Shown one piece after another: positions 1-10,925 of a DNA stretch of 11,066 nucleotides. This DNA comes from JBFLYE01 sp040756715 [NCBI: bacterium] (GTDB taxonomy: Bacteria; UBA9089; UBA9088), in contig JBFLYE010000050.1 of NCBI GenBank assembly GCA_040756715.1, positions 1 through 11,066 on the forward strand, in the 5' to 3' direction. Within the stretch, counting starts at the first letter, position 1. Each line of letters starts with the position of its first letter. A model generated the notes under the pieces. The model was given only the letters and a program-made list of their open reading frames with translations, was not told the origin of the DNA and did no database searches. The translations under genes were made by a program, and so were the position numbers.

Positions 1-66
1 AGAGGTTATTTTTTATATTCTAATGGCTAAAGTTGTACGAGCATTCTTATAAATTTTAATCTGCAT

Positions 67-97
67 ACGCTACATATTTTATCAAATAATGTAGCGT
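67..97. repeat. 9-bp perfect inverted repeat (hairpin) downstream of the secreted repeat-protein gene
   Basis: ACGCTACAT at 67-75 is the exact reverse complement of ATGTAGCGT at 89-97. The 13-base interior can add four A/T pairs (76-79 with 84-87, base 88 bulged), leaving a TATC loop. It starts about 54 bases past the stop codon of the repeat-protein gene at 151, so it could be a 3' mRNA hairpin or terminator. No clear run of T follows it on the minus strand, so intrinsic termination is not well supported. A regulator-binding palindrome for something to the left of the window is an alternative. The rest of 1-150 shows no gene. Confidence 0.55.
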
Positions 98-150
98 TAG
101 TTAACATCTACACATCTTCTGATCCTGCCTTTTCTCTCTGGCAGAAAGTT

Positions 151-939
151 TCATTCTGAGGTTTTAGTTTCAGCTATCCTTATAGCCTTATGAGCCAATC
201 TGGTAGCTATTCCAGAGCGCCTCAGGCTCAGACGATAGTCTCCTTCCTCAAAGGCCTTCTCAGCTTTTCTTTGCATCTGCTTTGCCTTAAAGAGCACCTT
301 TCCTGCCTCAAGGTTGTTGCTTTCGTTCACTATTTTGGTGGCCTTCTTGATCAGCTCATCCAGGCGAATAAGGGCCTTTTTGGCTGCCTCTTCTGGTCCA
401 CCTTCGGCTATCACTATCGCCTTAAGGGCAAATTCAGTAGCTCTCTCTATCAGTCTTAAAGCCTTTCTGTAATCACCATCCTCAATAGCCTTCTCTGCCT
501 TCTCAGCCTCCTTCTTGGCTTTCTCCAAGACCTCAGCCGCCTCCTCATTGCCACTCTCTTCCACTATCTTTTCTGCCCTCTCCAAGAGCCTCTCTAGGCG
601 CTCATAGGCTCTCTTTGCCCTCTCTTCCAACTTATCAGGCTTTGCGATCTCTATTGCCCGCAGGGCCAACTTGGTGGCAAAGCGAATGTGTTTTAAGGCC
701 TTTCTGTACTTACCATCCTCAATAGCCCTTTTTGCCTTCTCAGCCTCCTTCTTGGCTTTCTCTAAGACCTCAGCCGCCTCCTCATTGCCACTCTCTTCCA
801 CTATCTCCTCTGCCCTATCAAGCAGCTCCATCAGGTGGCCGAACTCCCTCTTGGCCACCTCTTTAGGGTCAGGCTGTGAGAAAGCTGTCCCTATCCCCAA
901 GACCATCATCCCTAAGATCATTGCCATTACCTTCTTCAT
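151..939 (-). CDS. secreted all-helical protein with three tandem ~79-residue repeats, function unknown
   Basis: I do not recognise a named family. From the ATG at 939 the product is 262 residues. Residues 1-21 form a signal peptide (MKK, then a Met/Leu/Gly/Ile-rich core, ending TAFSQ), so the protein is probably exported to the periplasm or beyond. The mature part is almost entirely Glu/Lys/Arg/Ala/Leu helix, with no Cys or Trp. It comprises three repeats at about 31-109, 110-188 and 189-262. Each carries the pattern ESGNEEAAEVL, then AKKEAEKA, then AIEDGxYRKAL, then ATxxALxAI, reminiscent of TPR-like helical hairpins. Repeats 1 and 2 are nearly identical; repeat 3 has diverged. The start is fixed by a strong Shine-Dalgarno (AGGAGGTGA at 953-945, 8 bases from the ATG after AGGAGG). 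The same frame is open upstream to an ATG at 1059, but that start would bury the signal peptide. Stop codon is TGA. A sigma-54 promoter at 1001-985 lies just upstream, next to a sigma-54 activator gene, so this is the likely regulated output. A binding, scaffold or chaperone role is possible but only a guess. Confidence 0.85.
   Translation of the reverse strand: MKKVMAMILGMMVLGIGTAFSQPDPKEVAKREFGHLMELLDRAEEIVEESGNEEAAEVLEKAKKEAEKAKRAIEDGKYRKALKHIRFATKLALRAIEIAKPDKLEERAKRAYERLERLLERAEKIVEESGNEEAAEVLEKAKKEAEKAEKAIEDGDYRKALRLIERATEFALKAIVIAEGGPEEAAKKALIRLDELIKKATKIVNESNNLEAGKVLFKAKQMQRKAEKAFEEGDYRLSLRRSGIATRLAHKAIRIAETKTSE
496..569 (-). repeat. internal DNA repeat, copy encoding protein repeat 2
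   Basis: This 74-bp block matches 733-806 at every base except one (526 C versus 763 T on the plus strand), at an offset of 237 bp, which is 79 codons. Similarity continues more weakly on both sides (about 458-585). Synonymous positions are conserved too, which points to recent duplication or gene conversion rather than ancient protein repeats. Confidence 0.9.
733..806 (-). repeat. internal DNA repeat, copy encoding protein repeat 1
   Basis: Partner of the block at 496-569 (73 of 74 identical, 237 bp apart, same reading frame). Recombination between the copies would delete or add exactly one 79-residue repeat without shifting the frame, so length variants of the protein are plausible. Confidence 0.9.
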
Positions 940-984
940 CTTACTCACCTCCTCGTAGGTTTTGGAAGCTTCCACTTTACTTAT

Positions 985-1001
985 AGCAAAAAGTATGCCA
1001 A
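985..1001 (-). promoter_or_regulatory. sigma-54 (-24/-12) promoter of the secreted repeat-protein gene
   Basis: Read on the minus strand the sequence is TTGGCATACTTTTTGCT. The GG of TTGGCA (999-998) and the GC of TTGC (987-986) are separated by exactly ten bases, matching the known consensus YTGGCAYN5TTGCW at every specified position. Predicted transcription start is about 974, giving a leader of about 35 bases to the ATG at 939. The site sits between a sigma-54 activator gene and an exported-protein gene, downstream of an rpoN gene, which strengthens the call. Confidence 0.88.
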
Positions 1002-1019
1002 AATAGATTTGCCTATTTT
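1000..1019 (-). repeat. 7-bp inverted repeat abutting the -24 element
   Basis: On the minus strand AAAATAG (1019-1013), a 6-base spacer, then CTATTTT (1006-1000) form a perfect palindrome. Its right arm runs into the first bases of the -24 box. It could be an operator for a regulator that blocks sigma-54 binding, or chance in AT-rich DNA. It has no GC pairs except at the inner end and is unlikely to terminate transcription. Confidence 0.3.
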
Positions 1020-1049
1020 TCAAGGGTCTTGTGAGATGCAAGGAGATAA

Positions 1050-1089
1050 AAATGCACATAATGGTACAAAAGTGTTCCTAAATGCACAT
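1050..1089 (-). promoter_or_regulatory. candidate activator-binding (enhancer) repeats upstream of the sigma-54 promoter
   Basis: The 10-base word ATGTGCATTT occurs twice on the minus strand, at 1089-1080 and 1059-1050, exactly 30 bp apart (about three helical turns). Relative to the predicted start near 974 the copies centre near -111 and -81, in the usual range for enhancer sites of sigma-54 activators. The first copy overlaps the last codons and stop of the activator gene. A third, weaker TGCATCTC follows at 1040-1033. Assignment to the adjacent regulator is an inference from position. Confidence 0.4.
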
Positions 1090-2403
1090 CTTCTTCAGCT
1101 TGGAATAGAGGGAGCGCCGGGTAATCCCCAACAGCTTGGCAGCTTTGGTCTTATTTCCCCCTGCCTTCTTGAGGGCTTCTTTGACTAGATCCTCCTCTAT
1201 CTTGGCTAAAGAGAGGCCAGAGTCTGGAATCTCTAAAGAGAGAGGTCCTTTCCTTCTTTCTCTGATATAAATGGAAAGGTGGTCAGGGGTGATCATTGAG
1301 TCCTGGGCTAACACTTGCGCTTGTTCTATGACATTCTCTAACTCCCTCACATTGCCTGGCCAATCATACTCTGCCAGAGAAGAGATAGCCTCTTTTGATA
1401 TCCTATCTTCCTGATGATGCAGAAAATGATAGATTAAATCAGAGATATCCTCCTTTCTCTCTCTAAGAGGAGGAAGGAAGATGGGGAAGGTGGAGATCCT
1501 GTAATAGAGATCCTCCCGAAACTCACCTTTCTTTAAGGCCTCCTCTAAGTCTTTGTTGGTGGCAGCAATGATCCTAACATCCACCTTGGTTGTCTTGACA
1601 CCTCCTAATCTGACAAACTCTTTATACTGGAGGACCCTCAATAGCTTGGCCTGGATCTCAAGGGCCATCTCTCCAATCTCATCCAAAAAGATGGTTCCCT
1701 TATCTGCCAACTCAAACCTGCCTGGTTTCTCTTTTTCTGCTCCTGTAAAGGCTCCTCTTTCATATCCAAAGAGCTCGCTCTCTAAGAGGGTGGAAGGAAG
1801 GGTGGCACAATGGACAACCACTAAAGGTTTCTCACTCCTTTTGCTGTTATGGTGGATTGCCTGGGCAATCAGCTCCTTTCCTGTTCCTGTCTCCCCCCTG
1901 ATCAAAACCATGGTATCAGTGGGAGCCACCTTCTCTACCAATCTCAAGAGATCCCTCATCTTGCCTGATCTGCCAACAATCTGATCAAACCTATACCTTT
2001 TCTTCAGCTCTTGCTTAAGCTCTATATTCTCCTTGATCAACCTCTTCTTTTCACCAATTCTTTTAATGAGCAGTTTCAGTTCATCTTGTTGGAATGGCTT
2101 GATCAGATAATCATAGGCCCCCTCCTTCATGGCAGAGACTGCTGTCTCCACCGTAGCATAGGCTGTGATGATGATTACCTCAGTATCAGGGGTATGCTTT
2201 TTCACCTCAGATAGGATGGTTATTCCGCTAACTTCAGGCATCTTAAGATCGCATATTATTACATCATACCCATATCTTCGGGCTTTCTCCAAACCTTCCC
2301 TTGCCTTCGTGGAGGTATCCACCTCATAACCTTCTTTGCTTAAAGAAAGCTCCAAGAGCTTGCAGATCTTGGATTCATCATCAATAATCAGTATCCTAAG
2401 CAT
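1078..2403 (-). CDS. sigma-54-dependent response regulator, NtrC/AtoC/ZraR type
   Basis: The product is 441 residues, a full-length NtrC-family activator. Residues 1-115 are a receiver domain: acidic pocket D8-D9, phospho-acceptor D52 in CDLKMP, T80, and K102 in IKPF. A helical linker leads to the AAA+ domain at about 141-375. This has Walker A GETGTGKE (170-177), GAFTGA (217-222, the loop that contacts sigma-54), Walker B TIFLDE ending D241-E242, AATN at 280-283, REDLYYR at 296-302 and WPGNVREL at 348-355. The C-terminus (415-438) is a Fis-type helix-turn-helix, GNKTKAAKLLGITRRSLYSK. All catalytic motifs are intact. The start at 2403 is chosen because MLRILIIDDE is the normal receiver beginning and AGGAGG lies at 2413-2408; an upstream in-frame ATG at 2439 would add 12 unrelated residues. 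It overlaps the kinase 3' end by 8 bp (ATGCTTAG). Stop is TAG. The likely partner is the kinase encoded just upstream, and the likely target is the promoter at 1001-985. Confidence 0.95.
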   Translation of the reverse strand: MLRILIIDDESKICKLLELSLSKEGYEVDTSTKAREGLEKARRYGYDVIICDLKMPEVSGITILSEVKKHTPDTEVIIITAYATVETAVSAMKEGAYDYLIKPFQQDELKLLIKRIGEKKRLIKENIELKQELKKRYRFDQIVGRSGKMRDLLRLVEKVAPTDTMVLIRGETGTGKELIAQAIHHNSKRSEKPLVVVHCATLPSTLLESELFGYERGAFTGAEKEKPGRFELADKGTIFLDEIGEMALEIQAKLLRVLQYKEFVRLGGVKTTKVDVRIIAATNKDLEEALKKGEFREDLYYRISTFPIFLPPLRERKEDISDLIYHFLHHQEDRISKEAISSLAEYDWPGNVRELENVIEQAQVLAQDSMITPDHLSIYIRERRKGPLSLEIPDSGLSLAKIEEDLVKEALKKAGGNKTKAAKLLGITRRSLYSKLKKMCI

Positions 2404-2815
2404 CTTGCCTCCTGAGGGGTAATCTGATAATAAACTCACATCCTCTCCCTTTTCTGCTTTTTACCTCTATCTTGCCCTGATGAGCCTCAAGGACAGACTT
2501 GACAATGGCCAATCCCAAGCCTGCTCCCTCCTCCTTGGTGGTGAAGAATGGTTCAAATATCCTCTTTCTATCCTCTTTTGCAATCCCCTTTCCTCTATCG
2601 GCAAACCTTATCTTGACAAAATCCTTCTCTTTCTTGGTCTCAATCTCTATCTTGACCGCCTCGTCAGTGCTCTCTATTGAATTTCGGATCAGATTGGAGA
2701 ATACCTCCGCTATCCTCTCTCTGTCTGCCAAGATATGGATGGCTGGGTCATAGCAGGTAGTAGCCTCTACCTTGAATCTCTTCAGCACAGAGTCAATAAC
2801 CTCAGGAAGAGCCAC
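2396..2815 (-). CDS. histidine kinase, C-terminal ATPase half (downstream of an in-frame stop)
   Basis: This open segment continues in the same frame as the kinase N-terminal half, after the TAG at 2869-2867. The frame is open from 2866; 2815 is only the first GTG. It encodes a complete HATPase_c domain: N-box with NLIRNS, G1 box DRGKGI, F-box FEPFFTTK and G2 box GAGLGLAIV, ending RRQDA. Numbered on the full kinase, these fall at about residues 322-382 of 420. There is no convincing ribosome site for the GTG: a GAGGA sequence sits almost on top of it. Independent translation therefore looks weak. The motifs show no decay, so either the stop is recent, read through, or a base-call error, or the half works as a separate protein. 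It ends in TAG inside the response regulator start (ATGCTTAG overlap). Confidence 0.75.
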   Translation of the reverse strand: MALPEVIDSVLKRFKVEATTCYDPAIHILADRERIAEVFSNLIRNSIESTDEAVKIEIETKKEKDFVKIRFADRGKGIAKEDRKRIFEPFFTTKEEGAGLGLAIVKSVLEAHQGKIEVKSRKGRGCEFIIRLPLRRQDA

Positions 2816-2866
2816 TTCCTCTAAATTGAGGGGCTCTTTTCTGAGGTTGAGAAAACGCCTGGTAGT

Positions 2867-2869
2867 CTA
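2867..2869 (-). other. in-frame amber (TAG) codon splitting the histidine kinase
   Basis: The codon is 264 of a kinase frame running 3658 to 2396. The preceding residues EEVKRID and the following TTRRFLNLRKEP together make a normal end of the dimerisation helix and linker to the ATPase domain. There is no frameshift or gap. One base change from CAG, AAG or GAG (Gln, Lys or Glu) explains it. TAG is also the ordinary stop of three genes in this window, including this kinase itself. Confidence 0.9.
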
Positions 2870-3658
2870 ATCTATTCTCTTCACCTCTTCTGTGATATAG
2901 TCAAAGAGCTCATCCTGTGATTCAGGATCATACCTCTCCTTCAAGGCCTCGGCTGTTCCCCTGATTATAGAGAGGGGATTCCTGATCTGGTGGGCTACTG
3001 ATCCTGCCATCTGGCCCATAGCCGCCACCCTCTCTGCCTGAAGAAGAAAAGCCTCAGAGGAGGCCAGAGAAGAGATGGCCTTGATCAAGAGTAAGACCAA
3101 AAGACCCACTCCTAAAGAAGCAAGGAGAGATCCTGCCATCAGACTTCTCTTTAGCCTATCCAAAACCCCCAAGAACTGAGCTGATGCCTCTACACAGAGG
3201 ATGGCCTCCTCTCCTATCGGAGCATACCCACTCTTGAAGTATAGCCCCTCAACCTGGTAGAGTTCTGAAGAAGAAACAGTCCCTGACCAAGCCTTATCAA
3301 CACTCTCAGGATGTAAAGCCAGATATGGATACTCCTGACCAAAGAAGATCTCAGGCCTTGTGTCTACCAAAGACCTTCTGTTTCTATCAAAGATGAAGAG
3401 AGCCTCCAATTGATTGGCCTCCTTTATCTTAGCCAGCAATGGATAGAGAGTTTCTGCAGTTTCAGAAGAAGAAAGAAGGGAGGAATCTATCTTCAAAGAA
3501 GAGGTGGCAGCTATTGCCTTTAGTCTCTCTCCCAACTCCTGATCCAGATAATCCTTTGCCTTTAAGTAGAAGAGGAAGGTAGCTGAGTTTACTCCTAAAA
3601 AGAGGAGGAGGCTAAAGAGAAGGATCAGCTTGATCTGGGTCTTTCTTTTAGTAATCAT
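2867..3658 (-). CDS. membrane sensor histidine kinase, N-terminal sensor and phospho-acceptor half, truncated by TAG
   Basis: From ATG at 3658 this segment encodes 263 residues. A basic N-terminus precedes TM1 (about 10-31) and an extracytoplasmic sensor region of about 32-168 with a Cache/PDC-like look (ALFIFDRNRRSLVDTRPEIF). TM2 is at about 173-195. The dimerisation domain carries the H-box MGQMAGSVAHQIRNPLS, with H223 as the expected phosphorylation site. Gln follows the His, as in FleS/FlrB-type kinases. The frame then hits TAG at codon 264. The full unit would be 420 residues, a normal NtrB/ZraS-like kinase acting on the sigma-54 activator downstream. The start at 3658 forms an ATGA overlap with the rpoN stop, implying translational coupling; an ATG at 3697 would add 13 residues inside rpoN and delay the membrane segment. 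As written, the product has a phospho-acceptor domain but no ATPase, so it could not autophosphorylate alone. Confidence 0.8.
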   Translation of the reverse strand: MITKRKTQIKLILLFSLLLFLGVNSATFLFYLKAKDYLDQELGERLKAIAATSSLKIDSSLLSSSETAETLYPLLAKIKEANQLEALFIFDRNRRSLVDTRPEIFFGQEYPYLALHPESVDKAWSGTVSSSELYQVEGLYFKSGYAPIGEEAILCVEASAQFLGVLDRLKRSLMAGSLLASLGVGLLVLLLIKAISSLASSEAFLLQAERVAAMGQMAGSVAHQIRNPLSIIRGTAEALKERYDPESQDELFDYITEEVKRID

Positions 3659-4698
3659 CTTCTTCTGAAAGATAGAATCTTCAGTTCCTTCCTGCATTGG
3701 GCTACTGTTCTTCGAGCCACAGATATTCCATATTTCTTTAAGGATTGTTGAATCTTTCCATCAGTGAGTGGGGTCTTTTCTTCTTCAATAATCTTCTCCA
3801 CCAAGAGTTTAAGTCTATCTTTTGAACTGAAAAAGAAGAATTTTAATGGCCTCTCTCCCCAAGGGGTCTCTACACATCGGTTTTGAATAGCCCTTGATAC
3901 TGAGGAGATGGCCACCCCTAAATCTTGAGCCACCTCAGTCTCAGTAAGAAGAGAGAGATCACTCAATCTTCCGTTCTTAAGATACTTAGCCTGCTGCTCC
4001 ACTATCTTCTCCAATATTTGAAAGATCAGGGTCTTTCTCGTATTGGCTAATTCAAGCTTTCTTAGCAGCCTTTTGATCTGAGAGATCTTGGCCTTATCAA
4101 ACCCTTCTTCTTTTAGCCTTTCATACTCTATGATGTATTTGCCTCTGGTCATATTTTGCCAGAAGAAGCCAATGGTGAGGTCATCCTGAATAGAGGCTAT
4201 CTTGGTGTAAGAAATGTAGCCTCCCCTATCTTTTGGCTGATACCATACCCCATACTGGACCTCAAAGTCTGTGATCAACTGATTGATTGCCTTGATCTGG
4301 GAAAGAGAGAGGGAAAGCTCCTTTTTAATATTCTCCAAACTTATCTGGCCATCGTTATAAAGGAAGAATCGGCAAAAATCCTCCTTCCCTATCTGCCTTA
4401 TCAGCTTGATGGTATCTTCTCTCTCTGAAAGAAGTGGCTCTGGGCTTTTGGCTGGTGAATCGGAGATGAGTTCTGGTCGCAGTTCCATTACCGAGAAGGT
4501 CCTGGGAAATCTTCTATATCTGATGATCCCAAGCTCAAGGAGCTCACCAAACAATGGGTCATCCTCCAATCTCCTAACATAGTCTGCGAACTCAGCCTCT
4601 GACAGGGAGAGGAGGTCAGCGGCCAACTTAGCCTTCATCTGAAGCCCAACTTTAAGCTTCGGAGCCTGTGAAAAAGGGGACGGTTCTATTTTTTTCAT
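3655..4698 (-). CDS. rpoN: RNA polymerase sigma-54 factor, short divergent form
   Basis: The product is 347 residues, clearly shorter than typical RpoN proteins (about 430-490). Region I at about 12-55 keeps the spacing of LLSLSEAEFADYVRRLEDDPLF, which corresponds to the usual LLQLS...ELE.NP segment, but is poor in glutamine. The acidic region II is nearly absent. The core-binding region spans about 90-215. The segment RKTLIFQILEKIVEQQAKYL (221-240) is typical of RpoN. The helix-turn-helix at 251-272 reads TETEVAQDLGVAISSVSRAI, where the familiar HESTVSR is changed to AISSVSR. TPWGERPLKFFF follows at 278-289. The RpoN box at 328-337 reads ARRTVAQCRK instead of ARRTVAKYRE. The identity as sigma-54 is secure; it may recognise a subset of promoters or be the genome's only, streamlined copy. 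AAGGA at 4707-4703 supports the start. It leads the rpoN-kinase-regulator operon, and its TGA overlaps the kinase ATG. Confidence 0.92.
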   Translation of the reverse strand: MKKIEPSPFSQAPKLKVGLQMKAKLAADLLSLSEAEFADYVRRLEDDPLFGELLELGIIRYRRFPRTFSVMELRPELISDSPAKSPEPLLSEREDTIKLIRQIGKEDFCRFFLYNDGQISLENIKKELSLSLSQIKAINQLITDFEVQYGVWYQPKDRGGYISYTKIASIQDDLTIGFFWQNMTRGKYIIEYERLKEEGFDKAKISQIKRLLRKLELANTRKTLIFQILEKIVEQQAKYLKNGRLSDLSLLTETEVAQDLGVAISSVSRAIQNRCVETPWGERPLKFFFFSSKDRLKLLVEKIIEEEKTPLTDGKIQQSLKKYGISVARRTVAQCRKELKILSFRRR

Positions 4699-5063
4699 CC
4701 TTTCCTTCTTGCTTCTTGGGTCTTTCTTTTGGCTTGATTACTTCCTTTATTTTATATTTTTCCTTTGTCTTTTCTTAAGAATTCTTCGTTCCCATATATT
4801 AGTTTTCTGTATGTGTTTAGGTAGACGAGAAGAAGAAAGGAAGTTAAAATGAAAGAAACGCACTAAATCCGAAAGCACAAAGCACGAAACAATATCTAAA
4901 TTCAAAATTCTAAACATTAGAGTTTTCAGATATATTGTTTTGAATTTTCAATTTTAGTCATTTGAATTTGTTTTTTTGATTTCGGATTTCATTTGTTCCA
5001 TTAAAGCTAAACACATACAATATTATTTACCCATTATATTTTGTGAAGAGCCAAAAAAATTTC
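4699..5063. other. 365-bp gene-free gap between the sprA-like gene and rpoN
   Basis: I see no open frame with family features and no RNA gene here. Bases 4808-5019 are a palindromic repeat element described separately. Bases 4699-4807 must hold the rpoN leader and probably its promoter, but I find no clear -35/-10 pair and no GG-N10-GC sigma-54 motif in it. Bases 5020-5063 follow the sprA-like stop and contain no GC-rich hairpin, so no intrinsic terminator is evident before the repeat element. The element's own long palindrome might serve as one. Confidence 0.6.
4808..5019. mobile_element. MITE-like palindromic repeat element with perfect 13-bp terminal inverted repeats
   Basis: TGTATGTGTTTAG at 4808-4820 is the exact reverse complement of CTAAACACATACA at 5007-5019, bounding 212 bp. 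Inside, AAATCCGAAA (4865-4874) pairs with TTTCGGATTT (4980-4989). Near the centre, AAACAATATCT (4887-4897) pairs, with two extra bases, with AGATATATTGTTT (4928-4940). The unit is non-coding and strongly AT-rich. ATATTA directly follows the right end (5020-5025) and also lies 6 bases outside the left end (4796-4801), which is not a clean target duplication. From memory, AAATCCGAAA and AAATTCAAAATTC words are typical of interspersed intergenic repeats in many uncultured bacteria. No transposase is present, so a non-autonomous element or a REP-like palindrome are both possible. Confidence 0.55.
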
Positions 5064-8000
5064 CTAAAACTTAAACTCCAAGCTTACATAAGAGCCATAG
5101 CCGAGATAATCCCTTTCTGCCTTTACCCTGTCTTTAAAGTATGAGAGGTTAAGACCTAGTGTTCCAGATGTATTCTCTTGAATCTTGTATGTTCCAGATA
5201 CATCAAATTTGTAATCGTCTTCGTTTATTTCCTGGATTTTCCCCTTTGTTTTACGCTTAAAGCTTGTATCAATTTTTCCTGTAAGGCTTAGCTTTCTCTC
5301 TAATGAGATTGCCCTTTTAATAAAAGGAATATTTAAAAACCCTGGCTTTGTATAATCATAAGTGCCAGATAGGGATGGATAAACCTCAAGGTTTTTTGTA
5401 ATCACACCCGATGCCTCCTTTGAATTTGAAAATGTTGTTTTAAGAATACTCGTTGTCTTCAGGTTATTCTTCCAATCTGCATTCCATTCAAGATATGGGT
5501 TATGGGTAATGCTGGTTGATCTTTCTTGGGTTGGCGTATATTGATGACTCCAATCTATTTTATAATTTGCCTTTAAAGATGAGGATGTAAACCTCTTTGA
5601 AAGCCCTGGTTTTGCTTTTAAAAGGTCTAATGTATTGTTTATTGAGTTTGATATTGTATCAGACCATAAAAGACCATTTTCCTTCTCTTCTAATGTCAGG
5701 GTAATCTTGCTCTCTGTGGTTAAAGGCTCATAAAGCTTCCAATTACCTGTAATCCCCCAGGATCTTGTATCAGAGGAAGATGTCCTTTTTGCCTTTGAAT
5801 ATAAATCTCCATTTGGACCTTTTCTCTTAAACAAAAGCCCCTTATGGAAATCATTATACACGGATAGTAATGTTTTTAGGGTCTCCTCATCCTGGTCAAG
5901 GTTATCATAGCCTGCATTTGCATCCAATGTAAAGGTGGTTGAAAGACCAACACTATATTTTTTCCATTTAATCTCACCGAGGCTATTATTTATCCCTAAA
6001 TGCGAGCTTGTAGATACCCTTTTTTTATAAATCCTCCTATCGGTTGAAATGTCATAATCCTCAAGGAAATAGAATTTCTTGTCAATCCTAGTTGAGGAAA
6101 TCAAGGGAATAAACCTTAATTTCCCAATCTCTACCCTGTTCAGGTCATACTTTATCTCCCTATGGGTTAAAAGGAGGGCTTTATCCTCTTTTGCCTTTGC
6201 TTCTGTTTGACCAAATGACAATTTATTTCCCTCAATGGTTAGAGAGCCTTTATTGTCCCTATGGAGGATATAGGTTGATTGATTTCTGTTTTTTGTTTCA
6301 TATATATATTGAGAAAGGTTTGAATCCTGCTTTTCCCTATTTTGTGTTATGCTATAATTTGTCTCTAAGGAAAAGGTTTTATAGGGAAATATACTTACAA
6401 TAATTCTATCTTTTACATTATCTTTCTCTGTTTTCTGGATTATCTCATTTTCTGGAATTCCGCTATATCTTGTTTTTAAATCTTCAATGCTCTTACTTAT
6501 TGAATACTCTGTTGAATATGAAGATTTTGGTAAAATCTTTGGAATGGGAATAGGCCCTTTTGGATAGAATTTTAAAACAAGGCTTGCAAGAGAAAGGTCT
6601 TTATCATTTCTTTCTAATGTGCCTGTTCCCTGCCTTCCTGGGTATTCTATATCCTCATTTGATATTTGCTTTTCTAATGAAATGTTTGAGCCAGAGAGGG
6701 ATGGATGGGGTGAAAAGGAAAGGGATGTTTTCCCAGAATGTGATCTCTTCTCTTTCTCATTGGTATTTGTTTTGTTAAGATAGTCTGTTAGGCTTCCTTT
6801 TTGCTTTGTAAAGCTATATGTTGTGCTTAATGATGGGCTTGAAATAGGTATTTTAAGAAGCCTTTGGGGAAATGTATATGAATGGGAAAGGGCTCCTCCA
6901 ATTTCTGAATTCATCCCTTCATTATTATTGTCAGAATAGCTATACAAAAATTCATTTTTTTTGTAATAACTTGACAAAACAGGAAACCCCTTGTTTTTCT
7001 TCTTGTTAAGGTCAAATGAGATATCAAATTTTTTATCAGATGTCTCATCAATCCCAAATTTCTGTATTGATACCTCATCAACATTCTTATAGGAAAGGTC
7101 ATTTTTCTTTTTATCATAAACAAATTTTAAAAGAGGGAAAACAGAAAACCTTGTAATGCTTGTATCAAAATGGATACTATCTGCCTCTTGTCCTGAAGCT
7201 ACAGGACCTATTGTCCTAAATTCTCCATCCTGTTTTGTCCTATTAAAATTAAAATTTCCCCAATTAGTCCATCCTCCAGATAAAGATACAAAATATGAAT
7301 CAGCCTCCCTCTTTATAACATCAGAAAGGTGAAGTTCATTGAGCCATATCTCTCCCTGTGAAGAAGCATTCAAAATAAACCTTATTTCATTGATTCTCCC
7401 CATGTTTGGAGAGCCAATTATAACAAAATTCCCACTTTGCGTTCCCTTTTTGGTAAGTAGCTCATTGAAAATGGAAAGGTTTATGCTTATAAGGCTTAAT
7501 CCTTTAGAGATTGTTCCCACATTATACTCAAAGCAATTGCTAGCATCCTGACCAAACCTTAATGAAAGGGATTGTGTTCCAGAATATCCATAAACCCAGA
7601 ACCTCAAGGATTTATAAGAATTATAATTCTGTGTTCTTCCAAGTGGCTTTCTTATATAGGCAGATGAGAATGTTGCAAAATTATAGGATATAGAAAGTGC
7701 TCCCTCCTCCTTAATATCCTCCTTCTCATGGAGCTTTTTATATTCAGGGTCATTAATTAAGCTTATATAATCAGCATCATCCTTTGAATTCCTTCCCAAT
7801 AGGGAAATTGTTCCTGTTCCCTTTGTTAGGACAGGCTTTTCCCAATTAGAGCCTATAATGGCTATCCTATCTATATGAAATGCTGTATTTAAAATTGATG
7901 CTGTTCCCGCATTTTTAAACCTTATCCTCATATGCTTGACAACCCTAAAGTCTACACCAGGGTCTTTTATTGGAATCTTATATAACTTCCATCCCGATAC

Positions 8001-10925
8001 TGTATTTTTTGTATCCTGAATATACCTTTCGTCATTTACAAGGACGGTAAAAATAGATTCTCCTGTTTCAAGAGAGCCATCAGAATCAAGGTCTTCACTA
8101 TCTAATTTGCCATTTTTTGCACCACACCTTGTTTCTGTTGAAAATGGAAAACCTATATCCTCGCCGGGGTTAAGGATGCCATCTTTATAAATAATATCCT
8201 CTGTATCCAAAATACCATCTCCATCACTATCCTCTGATACATTGCCAATATCAAGATAGAATTTTATTGTAGAGGATGAGGGGATATCGCTCCATACCTC
8301 AATGAATGAATAGTCAGAAAGGTCTATACCTTCCTTTGAAAGGGAGGTAGCAAGACCTACAAAGCACTCAGATGAACTTGTTCCCAGGGAGAGATTAAAT
8401 GTAAGCATCTTCTGCTTATTTTGCTCCTCATCTAACCTATGTCCTCCATCTTCTACATAAGGGCCACACCTTTCTGTATAAGGAATTTGCTTTCCATCTT
8501 CATAATAAAATATCTTTCCCCTTGGTGTGTAAACCTCTCCTGAGAGAAGGCTTGAAATTTGCCAGCTGGTTTCTGTAATCCCTCCCGATACTTCATTCTC
8601 TGTATTGTCCATAGAATCAATCATCCCATAGCCATATGTATTTGGATTCTGGATAGAATGGGCAAACTCTCCTTCAAATTTAGCCGAAAGTGCTCCATTA
8701 TAATCCATCTTTTCCTTTAAAAGCTCTGTAAGGGAGAGGCTTGAGTTAATATCAAATACAGAAAGTGATGTTGATGGATGGGTAACTGAGGGAGCACCCT
8801 TAAGCCCTGCACCAGATTCACCGATATATGTTCCACCAAGGGAAAAATTTGCTCCTGGCTTATACTCAAACCTTGTTCCCAAAAGGCTCTTTTGATATAC
8901 GCCAATGAATGGCGCATATTCATAGTCTACCTTTATCTCGTCCTCTGGCTTTATCTTTCTATAAATTGTTAGATAACCTACCTCATAGTCAATGGAATAT
9001 TCCCCTTTTGAAAGCCTATTGCCATTTATGTAAATAGCCTCACTCTCTGGAACAATATTGAGCTCATCAAGGGAGAATCCAAATTTTTCTGCAAAATAGC
9101 TTATTCTTATGGTATATTTTGATTGTGGGCTTTCTAATTTGTAGCAATTTTGGTTAGAGAGAAGGCTAAGGGTTGCTGGCTGTAGCAAAGAAAAGATATT
9201 TTCTGGATACCATGTGTCTTCATAGTAAAACCTATTATCCTTCTTTGTGGTAGATGTTGTAAAATCAAATGGAATCCTATCGGGAAATATAAGAAGCCCT
9301 AGGTCCAGGTCAAAAACATCCTTATCAATCTTGTTGTATTCTAATCTTTCATTTCCCTCCTGATCATACCTTTTATCCCTATCTAAACCAAAGATTCTAA
9401 CATAGGTTAGCTCTCCTGTATCAAAGAGGCCATTGTTATTTACATCATACCAATATTTCCCTCCTGTATCCCTTATTTCAAAAGAAAAGTCAGCTGCTTC
9501 TGGATTGATTTTTCTATAAAAAAGGCTATAATATCCTTTTAGCTCAAATAATTCATAAACCTCTGGTTTTTTTATCTCCTCTGCCCTTTCATTTTTTATG
9601 ATAAGGTTTGTTGTCTCAGATCCTTTTCCATCTATAAACGAGACAAAGACAACATTGTTTTCTGCGATAGGATATTTAAATGAAAGAATGCCTGTCCAAT
9701 AATCAAAGGAATAATCCTCGCCTGGGAATTTTTGGTCAAAATAGCCGGTATATGAGCCAGATTTCTCATAAGTGAAACCTGTAAGAGGGATTGCAGATGT
9801 ATTATTGTTCGGGTCTTTGTCATCAATGTAGAGCTTAAAAGAGCCGGGTTTTATGGGAAGATAACCCTTGTTTTTTAGCCATTCTATCCTTCCTTTATCT
9901 ACCTTATCGCCTTCCATATCAATTGAGCCAAGAACCTGATAAAATCTCCTCTTTATAAACGAGGTATCCTGGATATCTGAGAAACATAATGTTGTTGTCC
10001 CTTTAAATGATTTGCTCCTTGATTCTCCCTTTTCCCTGCTTGCAATTACAGAAAGATTAAGCTTCTTTTTTAATCCAGTTGCCTTTGCAGATATTCCAAA
10101 CCCAGATTTTTTGTAGCTTACAAATCTGGTTGCAGGAAGCTCTAATGCCACATCTCCAAATACTGCCTCCTGGACTACCTCTTCCTTGTCGCCTGTGTAT
10201 TTTACCTCAAATGTCTTTTTGGCAGGAAGAACATCTGTAGATTTATCAGAATAGTCAACATTTACAGAGACCTTTTTCTTTACTATCCCCTTAATCTTTA
10301 CCTCAAGCTCCTGGTCGATGTTTATTTGATTAGAAGTCTTCTGTTTTTCTGTTGTATTAAGAAGGCTTCTTCCAGAATATCCCATTTTTATAAATTTTCT
10401 TCCCAAAACATTTAAAGAAGATTCCTCCGGAAGGTTCCATTTTAAAGCCTCGCCTGGTTGTGTCTTAAGCCTTTCATATTCCTCTTTTGGCAAGATAAGC
10501 CTCTTTCTTCTATCCTCTGCCTCCTTTAGCCTATTGGATGCTAAGTCTGCCAATAATGTAAGATCCTCCTTTTCCTCCACCTCCCTCTTTGGTTCTTCTC
10601 CTTGAATTTCCTCTTTAAATTCTATAGTGGGTTCTTCTTTTATCTTTTCTTTTGAAAGGAGGGCTTCCCTCTCTTTCTCTAGCCTTTCTACATAAGGAGT
10701 AAGGTCTTCCTTTTCTATTTCTTCCTCTTTAAATTCAGGCTCCTCAAGATACTCAATTTTTTCCTCTGTTGTTTTGGTTTCAGGAAAATATGTTTCTTCT
10801 TCGTAAGTAATCTCTTTTTCGTTTGTTAATGAGAATGGGTTGATTCGGCAATAAGCAGGAGAAGAGAGAAGAGAGAAGAGAGAAGAGAGAAGAAGTAGGT
10901 AAGAAAGGAATTTTGAATTTTGCAT
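5064..10925 (-). CDS. sprA: SprA-like giant outer-membrane protein
   Basis: The product is 1953 residues. SprA is the very large beta-barrel translocon of the Bacteroidota type IX secretion and gliding system (about 2,400 residues there). Here residues 1-26 are a signal peptide rich in Leu/Ser, and 36-150 are a Glu/Lys-rich, probably coiled region. A SprA N-terminal-like section follows from about 165. Two copies of the family's strand module are visible, around 400-432 and 628-672, the latter reading GEYSIDYEVG then IKVDYEY. Aspartate-rich calcium-loop-like motifs occur at 494-505 (DVNNNGLFDTGE), 899-909 (DSDGDGILDTE) and 938-956. The best diagnostic is 1164-1200, with GSPNMGRINEIRF then GEIWLNEL, matching the GEIWVNELR signature of SprA. 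From about 1210 to the end the sequence alternates as beta strands and closes with the aromatic EFKF expected of barrel proteins. Start context is weak in Shine-Dalgarno; stop is TAG. Function as a true T9SS translocon is unproven, as no other T9SS gene is present in the window. GC content is visibly lower than in the downstream operon. Confidence 0.85.
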   Translation of the reverse strand: MQNSKFLSYLLLLSSLFSLLSSPAYCRINPFSLTNEKEITYEEETYFPETKTTEEKIEYLEEPEFKEEEIEKEDLTPYVERLEKEREALLSKEKIKEEPTIEFKEEIQGEEPKREVEEKEDLTLLADLASNRLKEAEDRRKRLILPKEEYERLKTQPGEALKWNLPEESSLNVLGRKFIKMGYSGRSLLNTTEKQKTSNQINIDQELEVKIKGIVKKKVSVNVDYSDKSTDVLPAKKTFEVKYTGDKEEVVQEAVFGDVALELPATRFVSYKKSGFGISAKATGLKKKLNLSVIASREKGESRSKSFKGTTTLCFSDIQDTSFIKRRFYQVLGSIDMEGDKVDKGRIEWLKNKGYLPIKPGSFKLYIDDKDPNNNTSAIPLTGFTYEKSGSYTGYFDQKFPGEDYSFDYWTGILSFKYPIAENNVVFVSFIDGKGSETTNLIIKNERAEEIKKPEVYELFELKGYYSLFYRKINPEAADFSFEIRDTGGKYWYDVNNNGLFDTGELTYVRIFGLDRDKRYDQEGNERLEYNKIDKDVFDLDLGLLIFPDRIPFDFTTSTTKKDNRFYYEDTWYPENIFSLLQPATLSLLSNQNCYKLESPQSKYTIRISYFAEKFGFSLDELNIVPESEAIYINGNRLSKGEYSIDYEVGYLTIYRKIKPEDEIKVDYEYAPFIGVYQKSLLGTRFEYKPGANFSLGGTYIGESGAGLKGAPSVTHPSTSLSVFDINSSLSLTELLKEKMDYNGALSAKFEGEFAHSIQNPNTYGYGMIDSMDNTENEVSGGITETSWQISSLLSGEVYTPRGKIFYYEDGKQIPYTERCGPYVEDGGHRLDEEQNKQKMLTFNLSLGTSSSECFVGLATSLSKEGIDLSDYSFIEVWSDIPSSSTIKFYLDIGNVSEDSDGDGILDTEDIIYKDGILNPGEDIGFPFSTETRCGAKNGKLDSEDLDSDGSLETGESIFTVLVNDERYIQDTKNTVSGWKLYKIPIKDPGVDFRVVKHMRIRFKNAGTASILNTAFHIDRIAIIGSNWEKPVLTKGTGTISLLGRNSKDDADYISLINDPEYKKLHEKEDIKEEGALSISYNFATFSSAYIRKPLGRTQNYNSYKSLRFWVYGYSGTQSLSLRFGQDASNCFEYNVGTISKGLSLISINLSIFNELLTKKGTQSGNFVIIGSPNMGRINEIRFILNASSQGEIWLNELHLSDVIKREADSYFVSLSGGWTNWGNFNFNRTKQDGEFRTIGPVASGQEADSIHFDTSITRFSVFPLLKFVYDKKKNDLSYKNVDEVSIQKFGIDETSDKKFDISFDLNKKKNKGFPVLSSYYKKNEFLYSYSDNNNEGMNSEIGGALSHSYTFPQRLLKIPISSPSLSTTYSFTKQKGSLTDYLNKTNTNEKEKRSHSGKTSLSFSPHPSLSGSNISLEKQISNEDIEYPGRQGTGTLERNDKDLSLASLVLKFYPKGPIPIPKILPKSSYSTEYSISKSIEDLKTRYSGIPENEIIQKTEKDNVKDRIIVSIFPYKTFSLETNYSITQNREKQDSNLSQYIYETKNRNQSTYILHRDNKGSLTIEGNKLSFGQTEAKAKEDKALLLTHREIKYDLNRVEIGKLRFIPLISSTRIDKKFYFLEDYDISTDRRIYKKRVSTSSHLGINNSLGEIKWKKYSVGLSTTFTLDANAGYDNLDQDEETLKTLLSVYNDFHKGLLFKRKGPNGDLYSKAKRTSSSDTRSWGITGNWKLYEPLTTESKITLTLEEKENGLLWSDTISNSINNTLDLLKAKPGLSKRFTSSSLKANYKIDWSHQYTPTQERSTSITHNPYLEWNADWKNNLKTTSILKTTFSNSKEASGVITKNLEVYPSLSGTYDYTKPGFLNIPFIKRAISLERKLSLTGKIDTSFKRKTKGKIQEINEDDYKFDVSGTYKIQENTSGTLGLNLSYFKDRVKAERDYLGYGSYVSLEFKF
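10861..10893. repeat. 7-bp tandem repeat (GAAGAGA)n in the signal-peptide codons of the sprA-like gene
   Basis: The plus strand shows four perfect GAAGAGA units (10861-10888) plus GAAGA, 4.7 copies in all. It encodes residues 11-21 of the SprA-like protein (Ser/Leu/Phe-rich core of the signal peptide). Seven is not a multiple of three, so gain or loss of one unit by slipped-strand replication would shift the frame and abolish the protein. Three units (21 bp) would keep the frame and change the hydrophobic core by seven residues. Confidence 0.9.
10908..10922. repeat. heptamer repeat GAATTTTGAATTTTG spanning the sprA-like start codons
   Basis: Two GAATTTT heptamers plus G overlap codons 2-6 (MQNSKF) of the SprA-like protein. 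The same word family recurs at 11038-11066 and inside the element at 4808-5019, which suggests that the translation start was built from or invaded by the intergenic repeat. Confidence 0.6.

What the first reader, a model, noticed from the sequence alone, without database searches (positions are those of the whole stretch)
151..4698. Self-contained sigma-54 circuit ending in a secreted helical-repeat protein
An rpoN, a sensor kinase and a GAFTGA-bearing activator are overlapped head-to-tail, and the next gene, an exported three-repeat helical protein of unknown family, is preceded by a full-match -24/-12 promoter. Sigma factor, signal input, activator, promoter and output are all within 4.6 kb. 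rpoN is often near unrelated housekeeping genes (for example the lptB-rpoN-hpf region), so a dedicated cassette with one secreted output is unusual. That the output responds to this very circuit is inferred.
Basis: partly seen in the sequence, partly recalled or inferred. Interest (0 to 1): 0.8.

Follow-up and report, generated by a model that had tools for sequence, protein, structure and literature searches.

The report
Portable sigma-54 circuit with mini sigma
A small bacterium appears to have picked up a complete gene-control circuit (its own reduced sigma-54 factor, sensor, activator, promoter and one exported helical protein) in one piece, whereas sigma-54 is normally a shared, genome-wide factor; the sensor gene carries a stop codon, so the copy may be damaged.

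Summary
This is the assembly's only rpoN and only true sigma-54 activator. Four relatives of its order have neither. Of three exact -24/-12 matches, only 985-1000 lies outside reading frames. All four genes differ in composition from the rest but lie between this genome's own dispersed repeats, beside an SprA gene 92% identical in a sister, so mis-binning is unlikely. The RpoN belongs to a separate clade of reduced sigma-54s (10 members, 100/100) without Pfam's activator-interacting or core-binding domains. Beside such genes, 5 of 6 gaps after the activator, this one included, hold a -24/-12 site. Kinase-activator-promoter-repeat protein is contiguous in one same-phylum relative and partly visible in two, all with ordinary RpoN. 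Best reading: a horizontally acquired, ZraPSR-like envelope-response circuit that carries its own sigma factor, with signal input possibly broken here. No expression data.

The parts
3655..4698 (-). reduced sigma-54 (mini-RpoN), 347 aa
   Evidence: Sigma54_DBD 2.1e-26, no AID or CBD hit; clade of 10 reduced RpoNs, 100/100; fold search top hits are sigma-54 chains
2396..3658 (-). membrane sensor histidine kinase region, interrupted by an in-frame stop
   Evidence: HisKA 1.8e-12 and HATPase_c 1.9e-28 on the two pieces; N-terminal piece 35-39% identical to orthologues in G005, G009, G010, G012, G015
2867..2869 (-). in-frame TAG inside the kinase frame
   Evidence: both sides open in the same frame; five orthologues have K or E there
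1078..2403 (-). NtrC/ZraR/AtoC-type response regulator, sigma-54 activator
   Evidence: REC, Sigma54_activat, AAA lid and HTH_8; GAFTGA; 54-56% identity over residues 2-438 to G015, G012 and G009
1050..1089 (-). candidate activator sites: 10-bp direct repeat at 1050-1059 and 1080-1089, 30 bp apart, with a GGAACA-N4-TGTACC dyad between them
   Evidence: an exact 10-bp repeat arises in 0.3% of shuffles; not tested experimentally
985..1000 (-). -24/-12 promoter TGGCATACTTTTTGCT
   Evidence: exact match; sites of at most 1 mismatch after the activator at four other mini-RpoN loci; exact sites upstream of homologues of the output in G015, G009, G013
151..939 (-). exported protein of three repeats, nine helices (output)
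   Evidence: signal-peptide-like start; AlphaFold2 mean pLDDT 89.3 from the single sequence; homologues in 8 of the 18 other phylum genomes searched
4808..5019 (.). dispersed element with 13-bp perfect terminal inverted repeats (right flank)
   Evidence: the flank 4740-5066 has at least 17 further matches in the same genome
1..121 (.). dispersed intergenic repeat (left flank)
   Evidence: 95-96% identical copies of parts of it (2-106, 20-113) on two other contigs of the same genome and 92% (20-121) in the same-genus genome

Best explanation
A self-contained sigma-54 circuit that entered a sigma-54-less lineage in one piece. The mini-RpoN would bind core polymerase and hold it closed at the one -24/-12 site. 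A membrane kinase would sense an envelope signal and phosphorylate the NtrC-type activator, which would bind sites 50-89 bases upstream and use its GAFTGA ATPase to open the promoter, so that the exported nine-helix protein is made as an envelope effector or chaperone-like protein, in the way ZraSR controls ZraP. Shown: gene content, order, promoter match, uniqueness in the assembly, deviating composition, clade, conserved arrangements. Inferred: horizontal arrival, transcription, DNA binding, signal, function of the output, and whether the interrupted kinase still works (as two pieces, by readthrough, or not at all).
For: One Sigma54_DBD gene and one true bEBP in a 96%-complete assembly; the second PF00158 hit is ClpC-like. 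No RpoN match and no PF00158 match better than 3.7e-9 in G001-G004. Exact site 45 bases before the output's ATG; the other two exact sites lie in reading frames. GC3 of the four genes 0.49-0.57 against 0.27-0.36 for five other genes of the genome and 0.32 for SprA. Own-genome repeats on both sides; SprA 92% in G001, where it is followed by other genes. Mini-RpoN clade 100/100. 5 of 6 post-activator gaps next to mini-rpoN have a -24/-12 site with at most 1 mismatch and the other 10 loci of 11 have none elsewhere; the near-copy L087 has one in its equivalent gap and one inside an ORF. Kinase-activator-site-output is contiguous in G015 and partly visible in G009 and G013. Sensor and recognition helix are conserved. 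ZraSR-ZraP precedent: PMC4987338, passages read.
Against: In-frame stop in the kinase. No Pfam AID or CBD in the sigma factor; its RpoN box reads ARRTVAQCR where most aligned canonical ones read ARRTVAKYR or close. L092, a mini-rpoN-activator pair, has no such site. Homologues of the output exist without a nearby sigma-54 site. The upstream direct repeat is not seen, by eye, upstream of the site in G015, G009 or G013. The four-gene order was not seen elsewhere. MAG data; no transcripts.
Confidence: 0.66

Rival explanations
1. A decaying island: the cassette arrived intact, but the kinase has since been broken, so the circuit no longer receives its signal and is silent or constitutively low.
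For: In-frame TAG at a position where five orthologues have K or E; the other three reading frames are intact, as in recent decay.
Against: rpoN, activator, promoter and output are all intact; a response regulator may be fed by another donor; the two pieces carry HisKA and HATPase_c apart.
Confidence: 0.35
2. The mini-RpoN is not an activator-dependent sigma factor but a DNA-binding derivative that occupies -24/-12 sites as a repressor or antagonist.
For: Only the DNA-binding domain is recognised by Pfam; local profile-profile alignment covers only the C-terminal part of canonical RpoN.
Against: Linked to activators in five lineages including this one; it is the only kind of RpoN found in G000, G356, G134, G192 and G045, each of which has at least one strong PF00158 match; global profile alignment places an AID-like N-terminus; VIA-align rows on sigma-54 chains span about residues 15-347 with Z up to 10.7, but at rmsd 9-24 A.
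Confidence: 0.15
3. Assembly chimera or mis-binning: the cassette belongs to another organism that has more activators.
For: Cassette GC and GC3 differ sharply from the rest; it is flanked by repeats, where assemblers err; the contig ends 150 bases beyond it.
Against: Both flanks are repeats of this very genome and the left one is also in the sister; contamination estimate 0.08%.
Confidence: 0.08
4. The -24/-12 match is chance and a sigma-70-type promoter drives the output.
For: A 9-of-12 sigma-70-like match overlaps the site at 1001-974.
Against: Such matches are no more frequent than in shuffles (8 against 6.3 in window 1-5100); exact -24/-12 sites precede homologues of the output in three relatives, and sites of at most 1 mismatch follow the activator at four other mini-RpoN loci.
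Confidence: 0.05

Closest known systems
ZraPSR (E. coli/Salmonella)
   Same: membrane kinase, NtrC-type activator, sigma-54 promoter, exported protein as output; PMC4987338 describes ZraP as a periplasmic zinc-dependent chaperone responding to envelope stress (passages read)
   Different: ZraPSR has divergent promoters and uses the shared genomic RpoN (recalled); here the output is downstream in tandem, has no ZraP match in the libraries scanned, and the cassette has its own reduced sigma-54
CtcB/CtcC-sigma-54 of Chlamydia trachomatis
   Same: a two-component system requisite for sigma-54 activation in a reduced genome (PMC7482065, passages read)
   Different: CtcC lacks a DNA-binding domain and its ATPase domain raised transcripts of 64 genes; here the activator keeps its HTH and one site outside reading frames was found
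Canonical RpoN of the same phylum (G005, G010), beside the orthologous kinase-activator pair
   Same: same kinase-activator pair beside an rpoN gene
   Different: 456-457 aa with AID, CBD and DBD, divergent orientation, outside the mini clade, no repeat-protein homologue in the stretch read
Mini-RpoN modules in MAGs labelled Clostridia, Elusimicrobia and Dehalococcoidales
   Same: reduced RpoN, kinase, NtrC-type activator, then a -24/-12 site of at most 1 mismatch
   Different: different kinases and different next genes (cupin/HTH regulator, DUF2341 protein, LysM-bearing protein, receiver protein); in L090 a receiver gene stands between activator and site

Membership tests
Sigma-54 (RpoN), canonical form | Sigma54_DBD | tested here: met
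   93.0 bits against cut-off 22.8; 7 of 7 members of A5
Sigma-54 (RpoN), canonical form | Sigma54_CBD and Sigma54_AID recognised by Pfam | tested here: not met
   no hit at E up to 1 in the window protein; neither among the 25 of 30 families shown for the 7 members; two canonical controls hit both
Sigma-54 (RpoN), canonical form | TIGR02395 equivalog cut-off | tested here: not met
   110.7 bits against 277.35
Sigma-54 (RpoN), canonical form | recognises -24/-12 GG-N10-GC promoters | not testable with these tools
   only positional association: 5 of 6 gaps
NtrC-type activator (bEBP) | receiver, AAA+ with GAFTGA, Fis-type HTH | tested here: met
ZraPSR | ZraS/ZraR equivalog cut-offs | tested here: not met
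   ZraR 393.5 against 760; ZraS 38.5 and 114.9 against 479 on the two kinase pieces
ZraPSR | sigma-54 promoter before an exported protein next to the two-component genes | tested here: met
   by sequence only
ZraPSR | zinc-binding periplasmic chaperone as output | not testable with these tools
   a sub-threshold SMBP (small metal-binding protein) match, 21.4 against 29 bits, is only a lead
HEPN domain (output protein) | PF05168 gathering score | tested here: inconclusive
   window protein 49.9 against 22 bits; homologue in G005 19.6, below cut-off; homologues in G015 and G013 no hit at E up to 0.05; exported helical repeats can score by composition

The most novel reading that the evidence does not exclude
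A separate clade of reduced sigma-54 factors works as private sigma factors: each travels with its own kinase-activator pair and promoter as a portable, self-sufficient circuit, so that activator-dependent transcription can be installed in a host without RpoN; kinase and output are exchangeable around the sigma-activator core.
Probability: 0.42. Interest if true: 0.85.

Novelty: new variant of a known kind. Interest (0 to 1): 0.7.

Why it matters
Sigma-54 is taught as a shared factor served by several activators (recalled). A reduced sigma-54 bundled with its activator and promoter would show that the whole activator-dependent mode of transcription can move as one unit, would define the minimal sigma-54 parts that still work, and would offer naturally insulated sigma-54 circuits for testing in laboratory strains.

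Tried and rejected
Single-sequence scan of named genomes with the window RpoN: no relative. Plasmid records: 42 with a match, none covering 80% of the query; the ten listed are ordinary rpoN or unannotated. Rfam: nothing at gathering thresholds. Fold search of the output: no PDB match at E up to 0.001; VIA-align Z up to 10.7 on a small three-helix protein, inside the range that helical bundles reach by arrangement alone, so no function is drawn from it. RpoN model: pLDDT 70.4, pTM 0.59 from 7 sequences; used only for overall fold. Chance explanation of the promoter: rejected on shuffles and conservation. Mis-binning: judged unlikely. Idea that the mini-RpoN derives from the phylum's own RpoN: not supported, the mini branch excludes all 13 same-phylum canonical rows. 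A shared activator operator between the window and G015/G009/G013: half-sites TGT-N-CC occur in all four but in different arrangements, and in G012 only in one orientation nearer the site; left open. Printed record: the listings showed no title or abstract start describing such a reduced, cassette-borne sigma-54; these are listings of the best 4-20 papers each, and most subscription papers are missing from the library.

Counting choices: the six gaps are those after an activator lying next to a mini-rpoN among 11 loci (window, L080, L081, L082, L083, L084, L086, L087, L090, L091, L092). L087 was set aside as a near-copy of L080. L090 and L092 come from one MAG. For L090 the gap was set to 11308-11500 although an ORF is listed from 11441; the site at 11399 lies before both. 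GG and GC were held fixed in the 1-mismatch scan. In one search the rows were 10 mini and 46 canonical; two canonical loci then in hand, L017 (not picked up by my list) and L027 (cut by a contig end), were left out, and the mini locus L087, also cut, was not used.
Full report
WHAT IS THERE. The window is a whole contig (G000:C50) of a 1.55-Mb, 96%-complete assembly. On the - strand: an SprA/Sov-like gene (TIGR04189, 3.1e-40, below its cut-off), then a four-gene cassette: a 347-aa RpoN (4698-3655), a membrane kinase (3658-2396), an NtrC-type activator (2403-1078) and, after an exact -24/-12 site (1000-985), an exported protein of three repeats (939-151). The first three overlap by 4 and 8 bases. 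The kinase frame holds an in-frame TAG at 2867-2869; five orthologues have K or E there. TAG also ends the activator gene, so it is read as a stop at least once in this genome.

HOW SELF-CONTAINED. PF04552 finds one RpoN. PF00158 finds two places, this activator and a ClpC-like protein at 1.6e-7. The -24/-12 consensus has three exact matches; about one is expected at 36% GC, a figure I assumed from the genes seen. One is the cassette's; one lies in a reading frame that ends at the start of a histone-deacetylase-like gene, with no room for a leader; one lies inside purH (both gene names are my reading). Of the order's other four genomes held, G001 and G002 (97% and 95% complete) and the less complete G003 and G004 (87% and 78%) have no RpoN match and no PF00158 match better than 3.7e-9. 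Of the 19 phylum genomes 14 match the RpoN query; the fifth miss, outside the order, is G012, which has strong activator matches.

DEVIATING BUT NOT MIS-BINNED. The four genes have GC 0.43-0.49 and GC3 0.49-0.57; SprA has 0.36 and 0.32, and five other genes of the genome GC3 0.27-0.36. Yet the left flank is a repeat with 95-96% copies on two other contigs of this genome and a 92% copy in the same-genus genome, and the right flank carries a 212-bp element with 13-bp perfect inverted ends and has at least 17 further matches in the genome. SprA is 92% identical in G001, where it is followed by small genes that look like toxin-antitoxin pairs (my reading) and by no cassette DNA in the 2.8 kb read. 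This fits one horizontal acquisition.

THE SIGMA FACTOR. In 386 genomes, 309 match the window RpoN, nearly all of the listed rows over its C-terminal part only; matches that start within residues 10-26 and run to 340-343 (E 1.9e-35 or better) are listed in four genomes besides this one: G356, G134 (two copies), G192 and G045 (list ordered by E and cut). A scan of named genomes with a three-sequence alignment gave eight loci, two of them contigs already seen. In a tree of the C-terminal 228 residues with 46 canonical RpoNs, the ten reduced ones form one side of a branch with 100/100 support and length 1.22 (bootstrap not fully settled). Pfam finds Sigma54_DBD in all 7 of alignment A5; CBD and AID are absent from the window protein's list and from the 25 of 30 families shown for the set. 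Of five reduced proteins scanned at E up to 0.01 (two of them also in A5), each shows only the DBD among sigma-54 families, while two canonical controls show all three. Global profile alignment suggests a shortened AID-like N-terminus and a reduced core-binding part, but the local alignment covers only the C-terminal part, so this is inference. The predicted model (pLDDT 70) finds sigma-54 chains first.

A RECURRING MODULE. Reduced rpoN, kinase, activator in this order occur in G356 (L080), G134 (L081), an Elusimicrobia-labelled MAG (L090) and a Dehalococcoidales-labelled MAG (L091); a second locus of the Elusimicrobia-labelled MAG has rpoN-activator (L092). The gap after the activator (in L090 after one more receiver gene) holds a -24/-12 site with at most one mismatch on the coding strand in 5 of 6 cases including the window (0 mismatches in the window and L081; 1 in L080, L090, L091; none found in L092). 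No other such site occurs in these 11 loci of 121 kb except two in L087, a near-copy of L080: one in the equivalent gap, one inside an ORF. Two reduced rpoNs lie without a kinase or activator beside them (L083, where the stretch ends just after rpoN, and L084), and two have a kinase nearby but no adjacent activator (L082, L086). In G356 both strong PF00158 matches lie on the rpoN contig. Species labels are those of the records; the Methanophagales label of L087 is probably a binning error (my inference).

THE OUTPUT IS CONSERVED WITH THE ACTIVATOR. Homologues of the repeat protein occur in 8 of 18 other phylum genomes searched, none in the order's other four, and in none of the four mini-RpoN genomes G356, G134, G192, G045. 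In G015 the order is kinase (N-terminal piece 35% identical), activator (53%), exact site, 92-aa ORF, 342-aa homologue; G009 and G013 show exact site, 88-aa ORF, homologue at contig ends. These three genomes have ordinary-length RpoN. The activators of G009, G012 and G015 share the recognition helix KAAKLLGITRRxLYS with the window and are its best matches in the phylum. In G005 and G010 the orthologous kinase-activator pair stands beside canonical rpoN, and the repeat-protein homologue elsewhere beside an ECF-like sigma gene (my reading); in G006 and G011 a longer homologue stands beside a kinase and a receiver-like protein. The family is thus often tied to signalling, but not always to sigma-54.

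MECHANISM. By established knowledge of sigma-54 (recalled; passages on it in PMC7482065 and PMC4987338) the activator binds upstream and opens the closed complex with ATP. Here a 10-bp direct repeat (1050-1059, 1080-1089) with a dyad between the copies lies 50-89 bases upstream of the site. The output is predicted as nine helices, pLDDT 89.3, with no informative PDB relative. I take an envelope-response circuit like ZraSR-ZraP as most likely; the signal is unknown and the kinase may be dead.

KNOWN OR NEW. Two-component sigma-54 circuits are known, and so are genomes with one activator: Francke et al. (PMC3162934, passages read) name FlgR as the only one of Campylobacter and note species with several RpoN copies. 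A reduced RpoN clade that travels with its activator and promoter was not seen in the listings of seven searches. I rate it a new variant of a known kind.

Noticed in passing
window 5064-10925: SprA/Sov-like gene (TIGR04189 3.1e-40, under its cut-off), 92% identical in the same-genus genome; its 3' neighbour differs between relatives.
   Followed up: partly
window 4808-5019: 212-bp dispersed element with 13-bp perfect inverted ends, MITE-like; whole or partial copies elsewhere in the genome.
   Followed up: partly
L080 4276-5631; L147 4629-5837: Activators with altered GAFTGA loops: GAFTDA beside the mini-RpoN of G356, and GAFPGA plus a missing HTH in G005.
   Followed up: no
L108 2322-6682; L109 2049-7074: Repeat-protein homologue in G005 and G010 near an ECF-like sigma gene, a probable anti-sigma gene and, in G005, a DUF3106 protein (names of the first two are my reading).
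   Followed up: partly
L091 8089-14960: Mini-RpoN module whose kinase begins with a ferredoxin-like 4Fe-4S motif, followed downstream by genes that look like NuoE/NuoF: perhaps redox control of a hydrogenase or dehydrogenase (my reading).
   Followed up: no
L081, L082; L090, L092: Two genomes carry two mini-RpoN genes each, in different settings: a chance to test whether they are mutually insulated.
   Followed up: no
L153 4379; L150 7686: Further exact -24/-12 sites in same-phylum genomes, one after an activator gene and before receiver genes, one near a contig end.
   Followed up: no
L116 1-150 and about 1000-1130: A stretch upstream of the G013 promoter seems repeated before the repeat-protein homologue (seen by eye).
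   Followed up: no
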